The notes beneath the pieces were generated by a model. It worked only from the letters and a program-made list of their open reading frames with translations, had not been told where the DNA came from and ran no database searches. Shown in pieces: positions 5,801-30,480 of a DNA stretch of 47,828 bases. The DNA comes from a virus, in the IMG/VR virus record IMGVR_UViG_3300044798_000079, positions 1 through 47,828 of that record; one strand, given 5' to 3'. How positions within the stretch are numbered: position 1 is the first letter of the stretch; each line of letters starts with the position of its first letter. A program made the translations under genes and the position numbers.

Positions 5801-6319
5801 TTAAACTCCGCCCGATCCAGGACCGGATACCACATTGCGGGGAGAGCTCTCCGGAATATCCAGTGGTTGAACTTTCTGGATATAATCCACCAAGAAAGCC
5901 CGCATCTTCTCGATATAATCGGTTATACGTTTCTCGTCGTAACTGATCAATCGGCAAGGCATTCTTGCACTCTGAGAATTAGAAAGTTCCTCCATCGTAT
6001 CGTCAAGTTGTCGAAGCAGATCATTGATGTCATCACTTTCCACCCTTGTCCACGGACACTTGGGTGGGAGATCGTAGTTCTTAGGTGCTGTTTCTGGGAG
6101 ATCGAGTTCTGGTTGTGCCTGTACCCAAACACGATAGGTATCTACCGAATCCAGATATTTCGCCAATCTGGTCTGATCCGCCACACTCATATACGGCACA
6201 CTTGAGGATGCACATTTCCAAAGTTCCTCAAGAAACCGATTGAGTCTCATCCAAATTCCGAAAACGTCACCGTTGTAAACCAATCCTTTAATTCCTGCAC
6301 CTGTCGTCATTGTGGCCAT
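5801..6319 (-). CDS. Hypothetical protein with an internal duplication
   Basis: 172 residues, with a good ribosome site (AGGAGGTGATAT). Two similar halves are visible. A helical segment ending in PELDLPETAPKN (about residues 90-101) is echoed near the C-terminus by a segment ending in PLDIPESSPRN (about 151-162). The tail ends in a Gly/Ser-rich stretch. It lies between lysis-region genes, possibly a minor structural protein. No family is recognised. Confidence 0.7.
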   Translation of the reverse strand: MATMTTGAGIKGLVYNGDVFGIWMRLNRFLEELWKCASSSVPYMSVADQTRLAKYLDSVDTYRVWVQAQPELDLPETAPKNYDLPPKCPWTRVESDDINDLLRQLDDTMEELSNSQSARMPCRLISYDEKRITDYIEKMRAFLVDYIQKVQPLDIPESSPRNVVSGPGSGGV

Positions 6320-21782: not shown

Positions 21783-21983
21783 TTATTTTCTTTTAGATGA
21801 TTCCTTTCTTAGGGCATTGTTAATACAATATTTTATATATTCATATTCTTCTGTGTTCATATTTTTTTTTAATATGCACATTAAAGATATTATCGGAAGC
21901 ATTTTATCGACAAATTTCAACATTCTTTTTTCATCCGAGGGAGTGATAAAAATACCGTTTAGAATAATTTGATCTTCGGGCAT
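21783..21983 (-). CDS. Small hypothetical protein
   Basis: 66 residues, helical, beginning MPEDQIILNGIFITPSDEKRM. The ribosome site AAAGGATAATC supports the start. It follows TIGR array A in the same direction. No family is recognised. Confidence 0.6.
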   Translation of the reverse strand: MPEDQIILNGIFITPSDEKRMLKFVDKMLPIISLMCILKKNMNTEEYEYIKYCINNALRKESSKRK

Positions 21984-22048
21984 TGATTATCCTTTCATGA
22001 GTAGAGGTTTAACCTAATCCACCCCCAAAGGTATAATATGTTAAGTTA

Positions 22049-22156
22049 CGCATGTTGACCCTGGGTTTCAAATGGGAACTCGCTCGCACAACCCGACTGG
22101 GTTTCAGTTCAACCTTCGCTCGCACCTATACCTTGGGTTTCATGGGGGTAATCGCT
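22049..22156 (-). repeat. TIGR array A: three 36-bp guide-RNA units
   Basis: Exactly 108 bp = 3 x 36. Read on the minus strand each unit is AGCGA - 9 variable - TGAAACCCA - 9 variable - TGCG, where TGCG|AGCGA joins consecutive units. Variable pairs in order: TTACCCCCA/AGGTATAGG, AGGTTGAAC/GTCGGGTTG, GTTCCCATT/GGGTCAACA. The conserved blocks are perfect in all three units apart from the outer edges, while the 9-mers are unrelated. This is the two-spacer architecture of TIGR arrays, whose RNAs are 36 nt. It starts 8 bp after the stop of the coiled-coil gene and is probably on the same transcript as array B and the tas gene. That these are guide RNAs is inferred from the architecture and the adjacent Tas-like gene. 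Confidence 0.88.
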
Positions 22157-22164
22157 TTATCCCA

Positions 22165-22815
22165 TTACAACGTAGCAGAACGTTGTATCGTGTTATTATG
22201 TTTATCAAATAGCTTCCTGATGCTGGTAACTGTTTGAGCTGTTACCTTGAGCTTTTCGATCTGCTCATTGAGTTCATTGATCTTTTTCATGGCTACCCGT
22301 AGAGCTTCTTTCGTCTTGTCATGTGTTGCCTTTTCATGTTCATACATGGCCTTCCAGTCGGTAATTTCCCTTTTTACCTTTGGCGTTTTCCGGTACTTCT
22401 CGATAATGGTCTCCATGTTTTTTCTCGACATTGGTGTTTTATGTGCAGCAGCCTCATGTTGAATTTCAGAAATAACTTTGTCAACCTTCATCCCTCCGCA
22501 CACCCTATCAATCTTTGCTACCATTCCTACTCCATATTCGATGGCATAAGTGGGGAACTTAGAAAATGCCCTTACATTTTCTCGATATGTTCCTTCCCGA
22601 ATAGTAAACCGATCTTCAAGGTAAGCCCAGAATGAGGACTTTTTGTAATGTGGATTTTCCTTGTAGCGGTAGCTTGTTCTCAAATATTCAAGGCATTCGT
22701 ACATTTCCTTCTGATGTTCCCTTGATAGAATGTGCAACTTCTCAATCTTGGTTTCGAGTTCTGTGATACTTACACCATCATACTTTGTTACTTTTTTTTC
22801 TTCTTGCTTTTCCAT
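22165..22815 (-). CDS. Coiled-coil protein encoded between the two TIGR arrays
   Basis: 216 residues. The N-terminal half has a helix-rich domain with SFWAYLEDRFTIREGTYRENVRAFSKFP, loosely like the HTH-type segment (EEYCKERWDLKRQRAYELIGA) of the plus-strand gene at 29126. Residues about 145-200 form a long charged coiled coil. A strong ribosome site (GAGGAGAACTC) follows the end of array B, and the stop is 8 bp before array A. Position makes it a candidate accessory of the TIGR locus, or simply a phage DNA-binding protein into whose flanks arrays were placed. No family is recognised with certainty. Confidence 0.75.
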   Translation of the reverse strand: MEKQEEKKVTKYDGVSITELETKIEKLHILSREHQKEMYECLEYLRTSYRYKENPHYKKSSFWAYLEDRFTIREGTYRENVRAFSKFPTYAIEYGVGMVAKIDRVCGGMKVDKVISEIQHEAAAHKTPMSRKNMETIIEKYRKTPKVKREITDWKAMYEHEKATHDKTKEALRVAMKKINELNEQIEKLKVTAQTVTSIRKLFDKHNNTIQRSATL

Positions 22816-22842
22816 TTGAGTTCTCCTCTCTTATTTTAAGTT

Positions 22843-23130
22843 CGCAAACTCATCATGGGTTTCATCTTTTCTCTCGCTCGCATCCCAATACTGGGTTTCA
22901 AACGTGGAGTCGCTCGCAGAATTTATTTAGGTTTCACGTCAACTTTCGCTCGCATTCTTTTATTGGGTTTCAAGAAGTCCGTCGCTCGCACACGTTCTTT
23001 GGATTTCAGCATTTCAATCGCTCATCTTTTACGGCCTCGCCTCAATATTGGGAGGGGACGCAAGGCGGTAATGGGTTTTATGGGCCTCCTCGCTCGCATT
23101 ATTCACCTGGATTTTAAACGGTTTTTCGCT
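22843..23130 (-). repeat. TIGR array B: eight 36-bp units, one degenerate
   Basis: 288 bp = 8 x 36 in strict register. From the 5' end (minus strand) units 1-2 (23130-23059) have loops TAAAATCCA and TAAAACCCA and lie inside the tas coding region. Unit 3 (23058-23023) is degenerate but exactly 36 bp, with TGAGGCGAG at the loop position; it contains the tas stop codon. Units 4-8 (23022-22843) have the edge TGCGAGCGA and the loop TGAAACCCA, with single changes in two loops. Variable pairs: AAAACCGTT/GGTGAATAA, GGAGGCCCA/TTACCGCCT, then TTGAAATGC/AAGAACGTG, CGGACTTCT/ATAAAAGAA, AAGTTGACG/AATAAATTC, CTCCACGTT/GTATTGGGA, GAGAAAAGA/TGATGAGTT. The geometry is edge 9, spacer 9, loop 9, spacer 9. Confidence 0.9.
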
Positions 23131-23973
23131 CTCTTCCTCCCAGTAAAAAGGCTGAATTATATTGGTATGTCCCATCAATGCTCCCGCATAGGGCTCTGAT
23201 ACTGGCTTCCCATCAAGAGTCCTTGCCACTGTCCACCAATGAGCAAGAAATATTTTAACCACTTCATTCTTTGCCGCATTATGGACATGACCCTTTGACC
23301 ATTCAGGATGATTCTTTGCATGCTTTGCCTTTCTCAAAAGAAGCAGGGCTTTATACGGATGATCATCTTGTTGCCTATTGAATTGATCTCCGATATGAAA
23401 ACCCAATGTTCTGCCAACTGTTGACCAATTAGACAAAACACCCTTTTTTCGCTTCGGCATAACGCCATCGATTGTATGCCTTCCCATATAAGCCCACCAT
23501 TTCGATATTGTTGGGAAGTCCTTATATTCGAGGCGATGCACCAAAAGACCCTCTTTTGCTACCTTCTTACAATCAACACAAGCCAATGTCTTTATTGTTT
23601 TCCCTGTTTCGGTTTGCTTTTCTTTTTTCTCCAATTTCCCTCCGCAATCTTTACAGACAGGGATAAATCGATAATAAAACAGGATGATCATCTGGGCCGC
23701 TATGAACGGGCCAATCCCTGATATTTTCTTTGCCCAGGTTTCCCATACATCCCACTGTTTCAATTCTTTTTCGATCTCTCTGGTAATCCGTCCCTTTACT
23801 GTTTCCAATCCTTCCGTCTTATCTTGTCCCTTTAAAAGTGTATCAAATTCCTCATTCCTTTCTTCCCCTGGCAGAGATTGAAGTCTCTGTTTCGTTGATG
23901 CAATTAATTGGGTTATACCTGCATACGTTCTCACCAGAAAATTCAAATACTTGATCCCTGCTTCGTTTGTCAT
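23029..23973 (-). CDS. tasA: Tas-like protein (TasA type; IS110/Nop-related, no nuclease)
   Basis: 314 residues, ribosome site AAAGGAGGAG 6 bases before the ATG. Residues 1-80 are a long helical segment. KISGIGPFIAAQMI (83-96) and DFPTISKWWAYMGR (152-165) are the helix-hairpin elements of the C-terminal domain of IS110-type transposases, which is structurally close to the Nop domain. A zinc-ribbon insert (Cys107, 110, 132, 135) separates them. Residues 175-255 continue as the basic helical core (SNWSTVGRTLGFHIGDQFNR; HVHNAAKNEVVKIFLAHWW). There is no DEDD/RuvC or HNH domain. With two 36-bp dual-spacer arrays alongside, the best reading is the guide-RNA-binding Tas protein of a TIGR system, TasA type. 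The last 33 residues (282-314) are translated from array units 1-3. An IS110 transposase is the likely automatic annotation but lacks catalytic domain and element ends. Confidence 0.82.
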   Translation of the reverse strand: MTNEAGIKYLNFLVRTYAGITQLIASTKQRLQSLPGEERNEEFDTLLKGQDKTEGLETVKGRITREIEKELKQWDVWETWAKKISGIGPFIAAQMIILFYYRFIPVCKDCGGKLEKKEKQTETGKTIKTLACVDCKKVAKEGLLVHRLEYKDFPTISKWWAYMGRHTIDGVMPKRKKGVLSNWSTVGRTLGFHIGDQFNRQQDDHPYKALLLLRKAKHAKNHPEWSKGHVHNAAKNEVVKIFLAHWWTVARTLDGKPVSEPYAGALMGHTNIIQPFYWEEESEKPFKIQVNNASEEAHKTHYRLASPPNIEARP

Positions 23974-24019
23974 CTCGACTCCTCCTTTATTTGGTTAGTT
24001 GTTTGGATTACCTTCTTTT

Positions 24020-24202
24020 TCACCTCCCTTTTGGATTCCGACATATCACCACACTGACCGTCTCATCTGCGGGCCACTTACCCAAATCCATAATGGACAG
24101 ATCTTCAGTCTCCAGAATAATCCTTGCCGATTTATCTAAAGAAACAAGCGCCTTAGATGAGACCTGTTTAATTACTCCAATAAATTCGATTCTTTCATCC
24201 AT
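24020..24202 (-). CDS. Small hypothetical protein
   Basis: 60 residues, beta-rich with the run VIKQVSSKALVSLDKSARIIL, resembling small OB-like or DUF folds but not assignable. The start overlaps the previous stop (ATGA). The site AGAAAGGAAAA supports it. It lies directly upstream of the tas gene. Confidence 0.65.
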   Translation of the reverse strand: MDERIEFIGVIKQVSSKALVSLDKSARIILETEDLSIMDLGKWPADETVSVVICRNPKGR

Positions 24203-24396
24203 TATTTTTCCTTTCTTCCAATAGTAAAATCATTAGGATTTCCTTTTTTATGTCTTTTTAAGTAAATCAATAAATTTGACAAAAATACTGGAATTGGAAT
24301 AATCGCACCATAAGTTTGTAGAGATGTCTTGACCCTTATTCCGATAGAGGGACCTTCCCATCGATAAAGCAAAAGATGTTTAATAGATAGTTTCAT
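24202..24396 (-). CDS. Small hypothetical protein
   Basis: 64 residues, with one hydrophobic stretch (about residues 30-45, IIPIPVFLSNLLIYL) and a basic tail. The ribosome site AAGGAGGGAAGG precedes the ATG, within a leader repeated before the next gene upstream. Possibly membrane-associated. No family is recognised. Confidence 0.6.
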   Translation of the reverse strand: MKLSIKHLLLYRWEGPSIGIRVKTSLQTYGAIIPIPVFLSNLLIYLKRHKKGNPNDFTIGRKEK

Positions 24397-29125: not shown

Positions 29126-29707
29126 ATGGAACTCGCCATAGATCATCAATTTAAATTATCTACCGATACTGAGAAACGACTTAATCAATTAGAAAAAATC
29201 ATCGAAAAGGGAATGGCTCATTTCGTAGAAGTTGGGACTGCTCTCTTAATTATTCAAAAAGAGAAACTTTATAAACTTATATTCCAAACCTTTGAGGAAT
29301 ACTGCAAAGAGAGATGGGATTTAAAAAGACAAAGAGCCTATGAGTTAATTGGAGCCGCACAGATTTCACAGAATTTGTCGGAAATTTACGACAATCTTCC
29401 TAAAAAAGAATCACATGCCGCAGCCCTTGCATCTCTCGAACCCGAACAACAAAAAGAAGCGTGGAAGAAAACCATAGAAACTGCACCGGAAGGTAGGGTA
29501 ACGGCTCGCCATGTTGAGAAGGTCGTTCAGGAAATGACACCCGAAACCAAAACGGAAATTGTTTCCGATTTAGATGAAGAACCAGAGGAAATTGAAGATA
29601 CACCCGTTCTAAAACAACTCAAGAAATATTGGGAAATGGCGGATTTATATGAAAAAGAAACATTTTTAGATTGGATCGGAGCAATTTATCAAAGGAGGAT
29701 AAAATGA
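29126..29707 (+). CDS. Early DNA-binding-like protein (KorB/ParB-type HTH region)
   Basis: 193 residues from ATG 29126 with AAGGAGGT 5 bases upstream. Pattern: a helical N-terminus, then FEEYCKERWDLKRQRAYELIGAAQISQNL (HTH-like), KKESHAAALASLEPEQQKEAWKKTI, and an acidic linker. Similar proteins occur as first early genes in phages, often annotated as nuclease inhibitors or ParB-like factors. The next gene overlaps by ATGA. Confidence 0.65.
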   Translation: MELAIDHQFKLSTDTEKRLNQLEKIIEKGMAHFVEVGTALLIIQKEKLYKLIFQTFEEYCKERWDLKRQRAYELIGAAQISQNLSEIYDNLPKKESHAAALASLEPEQQKEAWKKTIETAPEGRVTARHVEKVVQEMTPETKTEIVSDLDEEPEEIEDTPVLKQLKKYWEMADLYEKETFLDWIGAIYQRRIK

Positions 29708-30480
29708 AAAAAATCGTTCAGGTTAAATTATCAGACTTAAAGGATTCATTTTATATCAGAACAAAACTCAATGATGATCGACTTCAATACTTATGGTCGT
29801 TAAGGGAAGGTGGAGTAAAATTACCACCAATACTTATAACAAAAGACAATAAGATTGTTTGGGGAAGGCATAGAGTCTATGTAGAAAAAGAACTTATGAA
29901 TAACGATACGATTGAAGCCGAAATAACAGAGGAAGAGGATTTTCTTACTTTAGTAAAAATGTCATATGAAGAGAATTCTGAAGGCCCATTACCACCCACT
30001 AAAGACGATTTATTTCACACAATGACCCCCTTAGTTCAAAAAGGAATTCCATTAAAAAAAGTTGCAAATGCCTTTTCTTTTCTACCTTATGGGATGGTGA
30101 AAATGGCTTATCATCATGCCCAATGGAGAGAAGAAAATAAGAAATTACTTAAAGCACAGCAATTAGTAATTGAACAAAATTTTACAGTAAAAAAAGCAGC
30201 AGAAATCCTTGGAGTCAAAGAGGAAAAACTCAAAGAATTTATGAATAGGAAAAAACCAAATGGTGCAAGTGTAACAGCCTGTAAAAAAGAGATTGGTCAA
30301 AGATTCAATCATTTCAATAGGGTTAATGGTCAAAAAATAGGCGATCTATTTAAATGGTGGGATGATGGAATAATGATTAGAGAAGATGCAAATTCAGTAT
30401 TTCGTTATCTCGGAAAACTTATAATTAATCAAAATAAAATGTATGCCGATTGGCAGAAAAGATGGGATTCTAAAAAATGA
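29704..30480 (+). CDS. ParB/Srx-domain protein
   Basis: 258 residues from ATG 29704 (AAGGAGGATAAA upstream). The N-terminal ParB-like domain shows VKLSDLKDSFYIR and PPILITKDNKIVWGRHRVYVEKEL (the GRHR box). The C-terminal half has an HTH (FTVKKAAEILGVKEEKLKEFM). Likely a phage DNA-binding regulator in the early operon rather than a partition protein, as no ParA is present. Confidence 0.75.
   Translation: MKKIVQVKLSDLKDSFYIRTKLNDDRLQYLWSLREGGVKLPPILITKDNKIVWGRHRVYVEKELMNNDTIEAEITEEEDFLTLVKMSYEENSEGPLPPTKDDLFHTMTPLVQKGIPLKKVANAFSFLPYGMVKMAYHHAQWREENKKLLKAQQLVIEQNFTVKKAAEILGVKEEKLKEFMNRKKPNGASVTACKKEIGQRFNHFNRVNGQKIGDLFKWWDDGIMIREDANSVFRYLGKLIINQNKMYADWQKRWDSKK

What the first reader, a model, noticed from the sequence alone, without database searches (positions are those of the whole stretch)
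23029..23130. Guide array overlaps the tas coding sequence: the last 33 residues are array DNA
Units 1-2 of array B lie wholly in the tas frame and unit 3 holds the tas stop codon. Unit 3 is degenerate yet exactly 36 bp, so the register was kept. Either the array grew into the gene, or the mRNA 3' end is itself a substrate for RNA processing, which would couple guide production to loss of tas mRNA (possible autoregulation).
Basis: partly seen in the sequence, partly recalled or inferred. Interest (0 to 1): 0.85.

Follow-up and report, generated by a model that had tools for sequence, protein, structure and literature searches.

The report
Guide-RNA array inside its effector gene
In this phage the end of the gene for an RNA-guided DNA-binding protein is built from the guide-RNA array that programs the protein, and relatives do the same (one carries its only detected array wholly inside the gene), so messenger RNA and guide precursor are one molecule.

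Summary
The window is a tailed-phage record with a TIGR-Tas system (TasA type; sequence and fold match TasR 9mty and TasH 21kl). Residues 282-314 of Tas are encoded by two 36-nt array units plus a linker with the stop codon. 'Unit 3' is better read as the 3' end of a mini-array inside the gene, a coding linker, and the 5' end of a second array; its 36-nt length is not general. The overlap is not private to this phage. In about 50 related tas loci the array abuts the gene; in 11 one or more repeats lie inside the tas frame, always in the same frame; in about 9 the loop repeat's own TGA/TAA is the tas stop. Locus L128 has its only detected array, 7 units, wholly inside tas. Repeats inside the gene change like array repeats outside it (1 synonymous to 18 nonsynonymous; outside 1:19; protein core 94:37), so the RNA is constrained there and the peptide apparently is not; the tail is predicted disordered. 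The closest precedent in design is omega-RNA overlapping tnpB. Autoregulation stays untested; run-on into non-tas genes argues against a tas-specific purpose, and this window's two in-gene units have altered loop motifs.

The parts
23029..23973 (-). tas gene (TasA-like solo Nop protein with a CxxC...CxxC insert), 314 aa
   Evidence: ORF; profile match to TasR 9mty 2.6e-42 and TasH 21kl 4e-13; fold match to 9mty 6e-10; phrog_4285 covers residues 9-278 only
23029..23130 (-). array-derived 3' end of tas: residues 282-314 and stop codon; predicted disordered
   Evidence: frame and units; pLDDT below 50 for residues 277-314
23099..23134 (-). in-gene unit 1: 5'-truncated edge AGAGAGCGA, spacer AAAACCGTT, loop TAAAATCCA, spacer GGTGAATAA
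   Evidence: 14/18 consensus bases; box D UG reads UA
23063..23098 (-). in-gene unit 2: full edge TGCGAGCGA, spacer GGAGGCCCA, loop TAAAACCCA, spacer TTACCGCCT
   Evidence: 17/18 consensus bases; box D of the loop reads UA
23027..23062 (-). array boundary: 3'-truncated edge TGCG, coding linker (A)SPPNIEARP, tas stop TAA
   Evidence: 9/18; 47-nt stretch from 23062 is 79% identical to L004 and 70% to L003
22847..23026 (-). array B2: five units after the stop, opened by 5'-truncated edge GATGAGCGA
   Evidence: next edge TGCGAACTT (22846) is 3'-truncated and followed by a ribosome-binding site and ORF 22815-22165
22165..22815 (-). 216-aa ORF between arrays B and A; a similar start is visible after the array in L003
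   Evidence: (L003 sequence)
22053..22160 (-). array A: three units, opened by 5'-truncated edge ATAAAGCGA, closed by TGCGTAACTT

Best explanation
The locus is a phage TIGR-TasA system in which tas mRNA and pre-tigRNA are one molecule and the array begins inside the tas coding sequence. Shown: the repeats sit in the tas frame; the same state recurs in related loci; in-gene repeats change like array repeats, not like codons; in-gene spacers differ between close relatives; the encoded tail is predicted disordered and lies beyond the Nop core. Inferred: the array sits directly behind tas, and because 36 nt is 12 codons and two of three frames through the repeats are free of fixed stops, the ORF reads through until a spacer, a loop TGA/TAA or an array boundary ends it. 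The tail is a tolerated passenger. The RNA of the in-gene units is processed like the rest of the array in relatives with intact repeats (L004, L002, L012, L128), perhaps weakly or not at all in the window. Cutting at a full in-gene edge (23098-23090 here) would detach the stop codon from that transcript, so a transcript that yields those guides cannot also give a normal full-length Tas; this is an incidental trade-off rather than an evolved switch.
For: Two in-frame units, score 31 against at most 23 in 2000 shuffles. Eleven loci with in-gene repeats, including divergent tas (L096, L128) and a different array type (L150). The state needs at least 5 changes on starred branches of the core tree. 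L128: 7 units in tas, the only pattern matches in its 34.4-kb record. Codons at repeat positions are the array's (GCG 12/12 against 22% in the core, AGC 16/17 against 13%, ACC 12/12 against 18%). Changes within in-gene repeats 1 syn: 18 nonsyn, non-CDS units 1:19 (p=1), core WIN-L004 94:37 (p=2.5e-8). In-gene spacers of WIN and L004 differ while the boundary stretch is 79% and the core 79% nt identical. Tail pLDDT below 50. No promoter-like site on the minus strand between the tas 3' end and B2. Tas is required for, but does not catalyse, processing in TasR (PMC12045711).
Against: No RNA data. Both in-gene loops of the window carry TA instead of TG (0 of 8 other units do), so these two units may be decayed. 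Unit 1 has only a truncated edge, and the paper reports processing when full edges are present. In-gene repeats recently copied from the array would also show array codons without current selection; the syn:nonsyn test compares copies with a consensus, and the core test compares orthologues. L128's record may be a fragment, with another array elsewhere.
Confidence: 0.75

Rival explanations
1. Evolved autoregulation: Tas-dependent processing of the in-gene units cuts tas mRNA before its stop codon, giving non-stop mRNA and holding Tas low when free Tas exceeds guides.
For: Tas is needed for processing in TasR (PMC12045711). In-gene full edges exist in WIN, L002, L004, L012, L030, L053, L096, L128. 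In about 9 further loci the stop codon is inside the first loop, so the first unit's start lies inside tas.
Against: Most tas loci lack whole in-gene units; the state is gained and lost; non-tas genes L094 and L113 also run into arrays; window loops are altered in both in-gene units.
Confidence: 0.15
2. In-gene units are fossils: the array once met tas, the ORF ran on, and the in-gene repeats no longer give guides.
For: Window loops TAAAATCCA and TAAAACCCA; weak boundary stretch; short in-gene stretch in L003 (1 unit).
Against: L004, L002, L012 and L128 keep UG in every in-gene loop, and L004 has three full in-gene edges; in L128 no other array was found; the change spectrum is the same as in non-CDS units.
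Confidence: 0.3
3. The tail peptide is selected (for example as an RNA- or partner-binding tail) and the array resemblance is kept for the protein.
For: All tails use one reading frame (A-S-x...E-T-[QH]) and none uses the other open frame, although that frame has fewer stops (14% against 38% of units).
Against: Synonymous positions in repeats are nearly invariant while nonsynonymous ones vary; spacer-encoded residues do not match between WIN and L004; tail length varies 0-7 units; predicted disordered; sister L041 at 80% identity lacks it.
Confidence: 0.07
4. Reading tas through the array serves translation: ribosomes cross the array and reach the next gene or protect the transcript, keeping array and operon coupled.
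For: In L128 the tas stop overlaps a downstream ATG (TGATG), and in L002 an ATG follows soon after the stop (sequence).
Against: In the window, L003 and L004 untranslated array units follow the stop and the next gene has its own ribosome-binding site.
Confidence: 0.1

Closest known systems
TIGR-Tas systems (Faure et al. 2025, PMC12045711), TasA type
   Same: Nop protein related to TasR and TasH, 36-nt edge/loop dual-repeat array with two 9-nt spacers per unit, truncated first and last edges, phage host
   Different: the paper's main text places arrays upstream and/or downstream of tas; here and in relatives the array lies partly or wholly inside tas. No terminator-like site found after these arrays on the minus strand
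TnpB omega-RNA (reRNA) overlapping the 3' end of tnpB (PMC10097598; processing of own mRNA PMC10278001)
   Same: guide RNA encoded in the 3' coding end of its effector gene; the overlapped protein C-terminus is disordered; mRNA is the guide precursor
   Different: unrelated effector and RNA; one guide per element there, a multi-unit array here; TnpB cleaves the RNA itself, whereas Tas does not appear to catalyse the cut
IS110 transposase and bridge RNA
   Same: Nop-type RNA-binding domain (fold match 8wt9 at E 0.02)
   Different: no transposase catalytic domain detected here; array rather than a single bridge RNA

Membership tests
TIGR-Tas | Nop-domain protein related to TasA/TasR/TasH | tested here: met
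   profile search 9mty 2.6e-42, 21kl 4e-13; fold 9mty 6e-10, 21kl 5e-7
[quoted passage not shown]
TIGR-Tas | box D UG opening each repeat and C-box motif closing it | tested here: inconclusive
   met in the complete units of arrays B2 and A; both in-gene loops of the window have UA for UG, although in-gene loops of the relatives keep UG
TIGR-Tas | array starts with 5'-truncated and ends with 3'-truncated edge | tested here: met
   AGAGAGCGA, GATGAGCGA, ATAAAGCGA at starts; TGCGTCC, TGCGAACTT, TGCGTAACTT at ends
TIGR-Tas | predicted rho-independent terminator after the array | tested here: not met
   none on the minus strand in 21900-24300; described as typical, not obligatory, in PMC12045711
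TIGR-Tas | 36-nt tigRNAs bound to Tas and RNA-guided DNA binding | not testable with these tools
   no RNA data; no target found in held sequence
TasA subtype | no HNH or RuvC domain | tested here: met
   no Pfam domain found; phrog_4285 covers residues 9-278 as one family
TnpB/omega-RNA | TnpB effector and omega-RNA fold | tested here: not met
   protein is a Tas homologue; no Rfam match in the window. Similar in design only

The most novel reading that the evidence does not exclude
In some phage TIGR systems (L128 type) the working guide array is wholly translated coding sequence of its own effector, so every guide is made at the cost of a full-length effector message: a built-in trade-off that sets the ratio of guides to Tas.
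Probability: 0.25. Interest if true: 0.82.

Novelty: new variant of a known kind. Interest (0 to 1): 0.62.

Why it matters
TIGR-Tas was described in 2025 with arrays beside the gene; how arrays grow and how tigRNAs mature are stated open questions. Loci in which the array is coding sequence let both be tested: each spacer change also changes the protein, and guide maturation must compete with translation. It is a second, unrelated case, after TnpB, of an effector gene whose 3' coding end encodes guide RNA over a disordered protein tail, and it warns that array finders which mask coding sequence will miss or trim arrays.

Tried and rejected
Chance similarity: rejected. A conserved independent Tas C-terminus: rejected. 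Long open tail as evidence of selection: inconclusive. In-gene units are almost all open where 72% of non-CDS units of the same loci are (P 0.003 for 18, but the script counted L053 unit 2, which holds a stop); after setting aside the first unit of each locus, which is open by the way loci were chosen, my hand calculation gives about 0.14. Spacer targets in the window and about 1.2 Mb of held loci, both orders, gaps 0-2, up to 2 mismatches: none in the window, 2 in all against 1-6 for shuffled spacers. Rfam: none. Promoter scan: nothing between the tas 3' end and B2 on the minus strand, count at chance level. Search of 155 genomes of the Smithella class: only the known hit. Automatic classification misplaced L003, L026 and L010 and listed a spurious second L011 entry; corrected by hand. 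In one search the L026 unit was one base out of register; left out of the 18:1 count.

Full report
What is in the sequence. The window is a 47.8-kb virus record with portal, terminase, protease and major head genes on the minus strand. tas occupies 23973-23029 (-). On the same strand, units of 36 nt (edge TGCGAGCGA, 9 nt, loop TGAAACCCA, 9 nt) run from 23134 to 22847 and again from 22160 to 22053. The first two units, 23134-23099 and 23098-23063, are entirely tas codons; tas stops at 23031-23029 in the next 36 nt. A two-unit score of 31 compares with a maximum of 23 in 2000 codon-shuffled copies of tas. So the last 33 residues (282-314) are array-derived, as reported.

A correction to the anatomy. 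The 36 nt that hold the stop are not simply a decayed unit. They begin with TGCG without the rest of the edge, which is how arrays B and A end (TGCGAACTT, TGCGTAACTT), and the next 36 nt begin with GATGAGCGA, a 5'-truncated edge like the one that opens array A (ATAAAGCGA). PMC12045711 describes truncated edges as the normal array ends. I therefore read a two-unit mini-array inside tas, a coding linker with the stop, and a second array. The boundary stretch is 79% identical in L004 and 70% in L003 over 47 nt. In L030 and L012, which have the same layout, the interval from 3'-truncated to 5'-truncated edge is 39 and 41 nt (positions), so 36 is shared history rather than a rule.

Relatives. Protein searches gave 34 distinct loci and array-pattern searches added more, about 50 tas-array junctions in all. 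The Nop core ends at PFYW/PFYF and the array follows at once. After hand correction, one or more loop repeats lie inside tas in 11 loci: window, L002, L003, L004, L012, L026, L030, L053, L096, L128, L150. In about 9 more (L005, L006, L017, L039, L040, L055, L070, L083, L135) the stop codon is TGA or TAA of the first loop repeat; in a further 9 it lies in the first, truncated edge (for example L041, AAGTAGCGA). So overlap at the stop codon is common and the window's case is a longer form of it. On the tree of cores the in-gene state needs at least 5 changes on starred branches; a close sister, L041 (80% identity), lacks in-gene units.

L128. In this 34.4-kb record a 416-aa frame that matches TasR (9.2e-17 for its core) contains seven consecutive units, ending at a truncated edge just before its stop. 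A pattern search of the whole record finds six matches, all inside tas. If the record is complete enough, all guides of that system must come from tas codons. Only this one copy was found.

Is the constraint on RNA or protein? At the four repeat codons, in-gene units use array codons (GCG 12/12, AGC 16/17, GAA 16/16, ACC 12/12 against 22, 13, 56 and 18% in the cores). Departures from the repeat consensus in in-gene units are 1 synonymous and 18 nonsynonymous (without the mis-registered L026); in 65 units outside genes the same positions give 1 and 19. Core codon differences between window and L004 are 94 synonymous to 37 nonsynonymous; Fisher p 2.5e-8. In-gene spacers of window and L004 do not correspond, although core and boundary are 79% nt identical. 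The peptide looks like a by-product. AlphaFold gives a confident core and pLDDT below 50 for 277-314; the PHROG family ends at residue 278. These tests compare array copies that may have been copied recently, so they show array-like evolution, not proof of present guide function.

Frames. Reading TGC-GAG-C.. stops at the loop TGA; the other two frames have no fixed stop. All 11 in-gene cases use the A-S-x/E-T-[QH] frame (with V for A in TGTGAACC-type edges) and none the third frame, although the third is more open (14% against 38% of non-CDS units contain a stop). I have no firm explanation; a basic tail in the third frame may be disfavoured.

Mechanism. Shown by sequence: co-directional array beginning inside tas, with no promoter-like site on that strand between the tas 3' end and B2. 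Known from the literature: arrays are cut to 36-nt tigRNAs in the middle of edges, Tas is needed but does not appear to do the cutting, and full edges are needed (PMC12045711). Inferred: a cut at the full in-gene edge 23098-23090 would separate the stop from that mRNA. Whether this matters for Tas level is open. For the window itself guide function of the two in-gene units is uncertain, because both loops read TA where the others read TG and unit 1 lacks a full edge; L004, L002, L012 and L128 are better test cases. Run-on into non-tas genes (L094, a 195-aa ORF ending ETRKRSASHTQSETRL; L113, a pentapeptide-repeat-like ORF, other frame) shows that overlap needs no tas-specific cause.

Comparison with known systems. 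It is a TIGR-TasA system by homology and array anatomy. The main text of PMC12045711 places arrays upstream or downstream of tas and a search of it for overlap found no mention of this arrangement; its supplements could not be read. In design it resembles TnpB, whose omega-RNA overlaps the 3' end of tnpB over a disordered, dispensable C-terminus (PMC10097598) and is cut from tnpB mRNA (PMC10278001). Novelty: a new variant of a known kind.

Noticed in passing
L128, minus strand (record IMGVR_UViG_3300044799_000414): Seven-unit array wholly inside tas, only array found in the record; the tas stop overlaps a downstream ATG (TGATG).
   Followed up: partly
L094, minus strand, about reverse-complement 6150-6224: A 195-aa ORF with no tas match ends in array units (SCDETRKRSASHTQSETRL) in the same frame as the tas tails.
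   Followed up: partly
L113:1848-2313: A pentapeptide-repeat-like ORF runs into an array in the third frame, giving a basic tail (KARVRAKGGMKSKN).
   Followed up: no
L053:4809-4845: Spacer B of the first unit is itself a copy of the loop repeat (TGAAACCCA), perhaps a trace of unit duplication.
   Followed up: no
IMGVR_UViG_3300036863_000086 (L082, L100, L116, L119): Many TIGR arrays spread over one 72-kb phage contig, with irregular spacing between units.
   Followed up: no
window 29671-30480 (+): By eye a ParB-like protein (KLSDLKDS...GRHRVYVEKE); tasParB genes are reported beside some tasA genes, this one is about 6 kb away on the other strand. PHROGs gave only a weak terminase small subunit match.
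   Followed up: no
window 22855-23199 (+) and 22785-23117 (+): Open frames antisense to array B of 110-114 codons, probably an effect of the 36-nt repeat on stops.
   Followed up: no
L041 (Candidatus Methanoperedens MAG contig JAHFDG010000025.1): Closest genome-collection relative of the window tas (80%) lies in an archaeal MAG, while another relative lies in a Smithella assembly; host or binning unclear.
   Followed up: no
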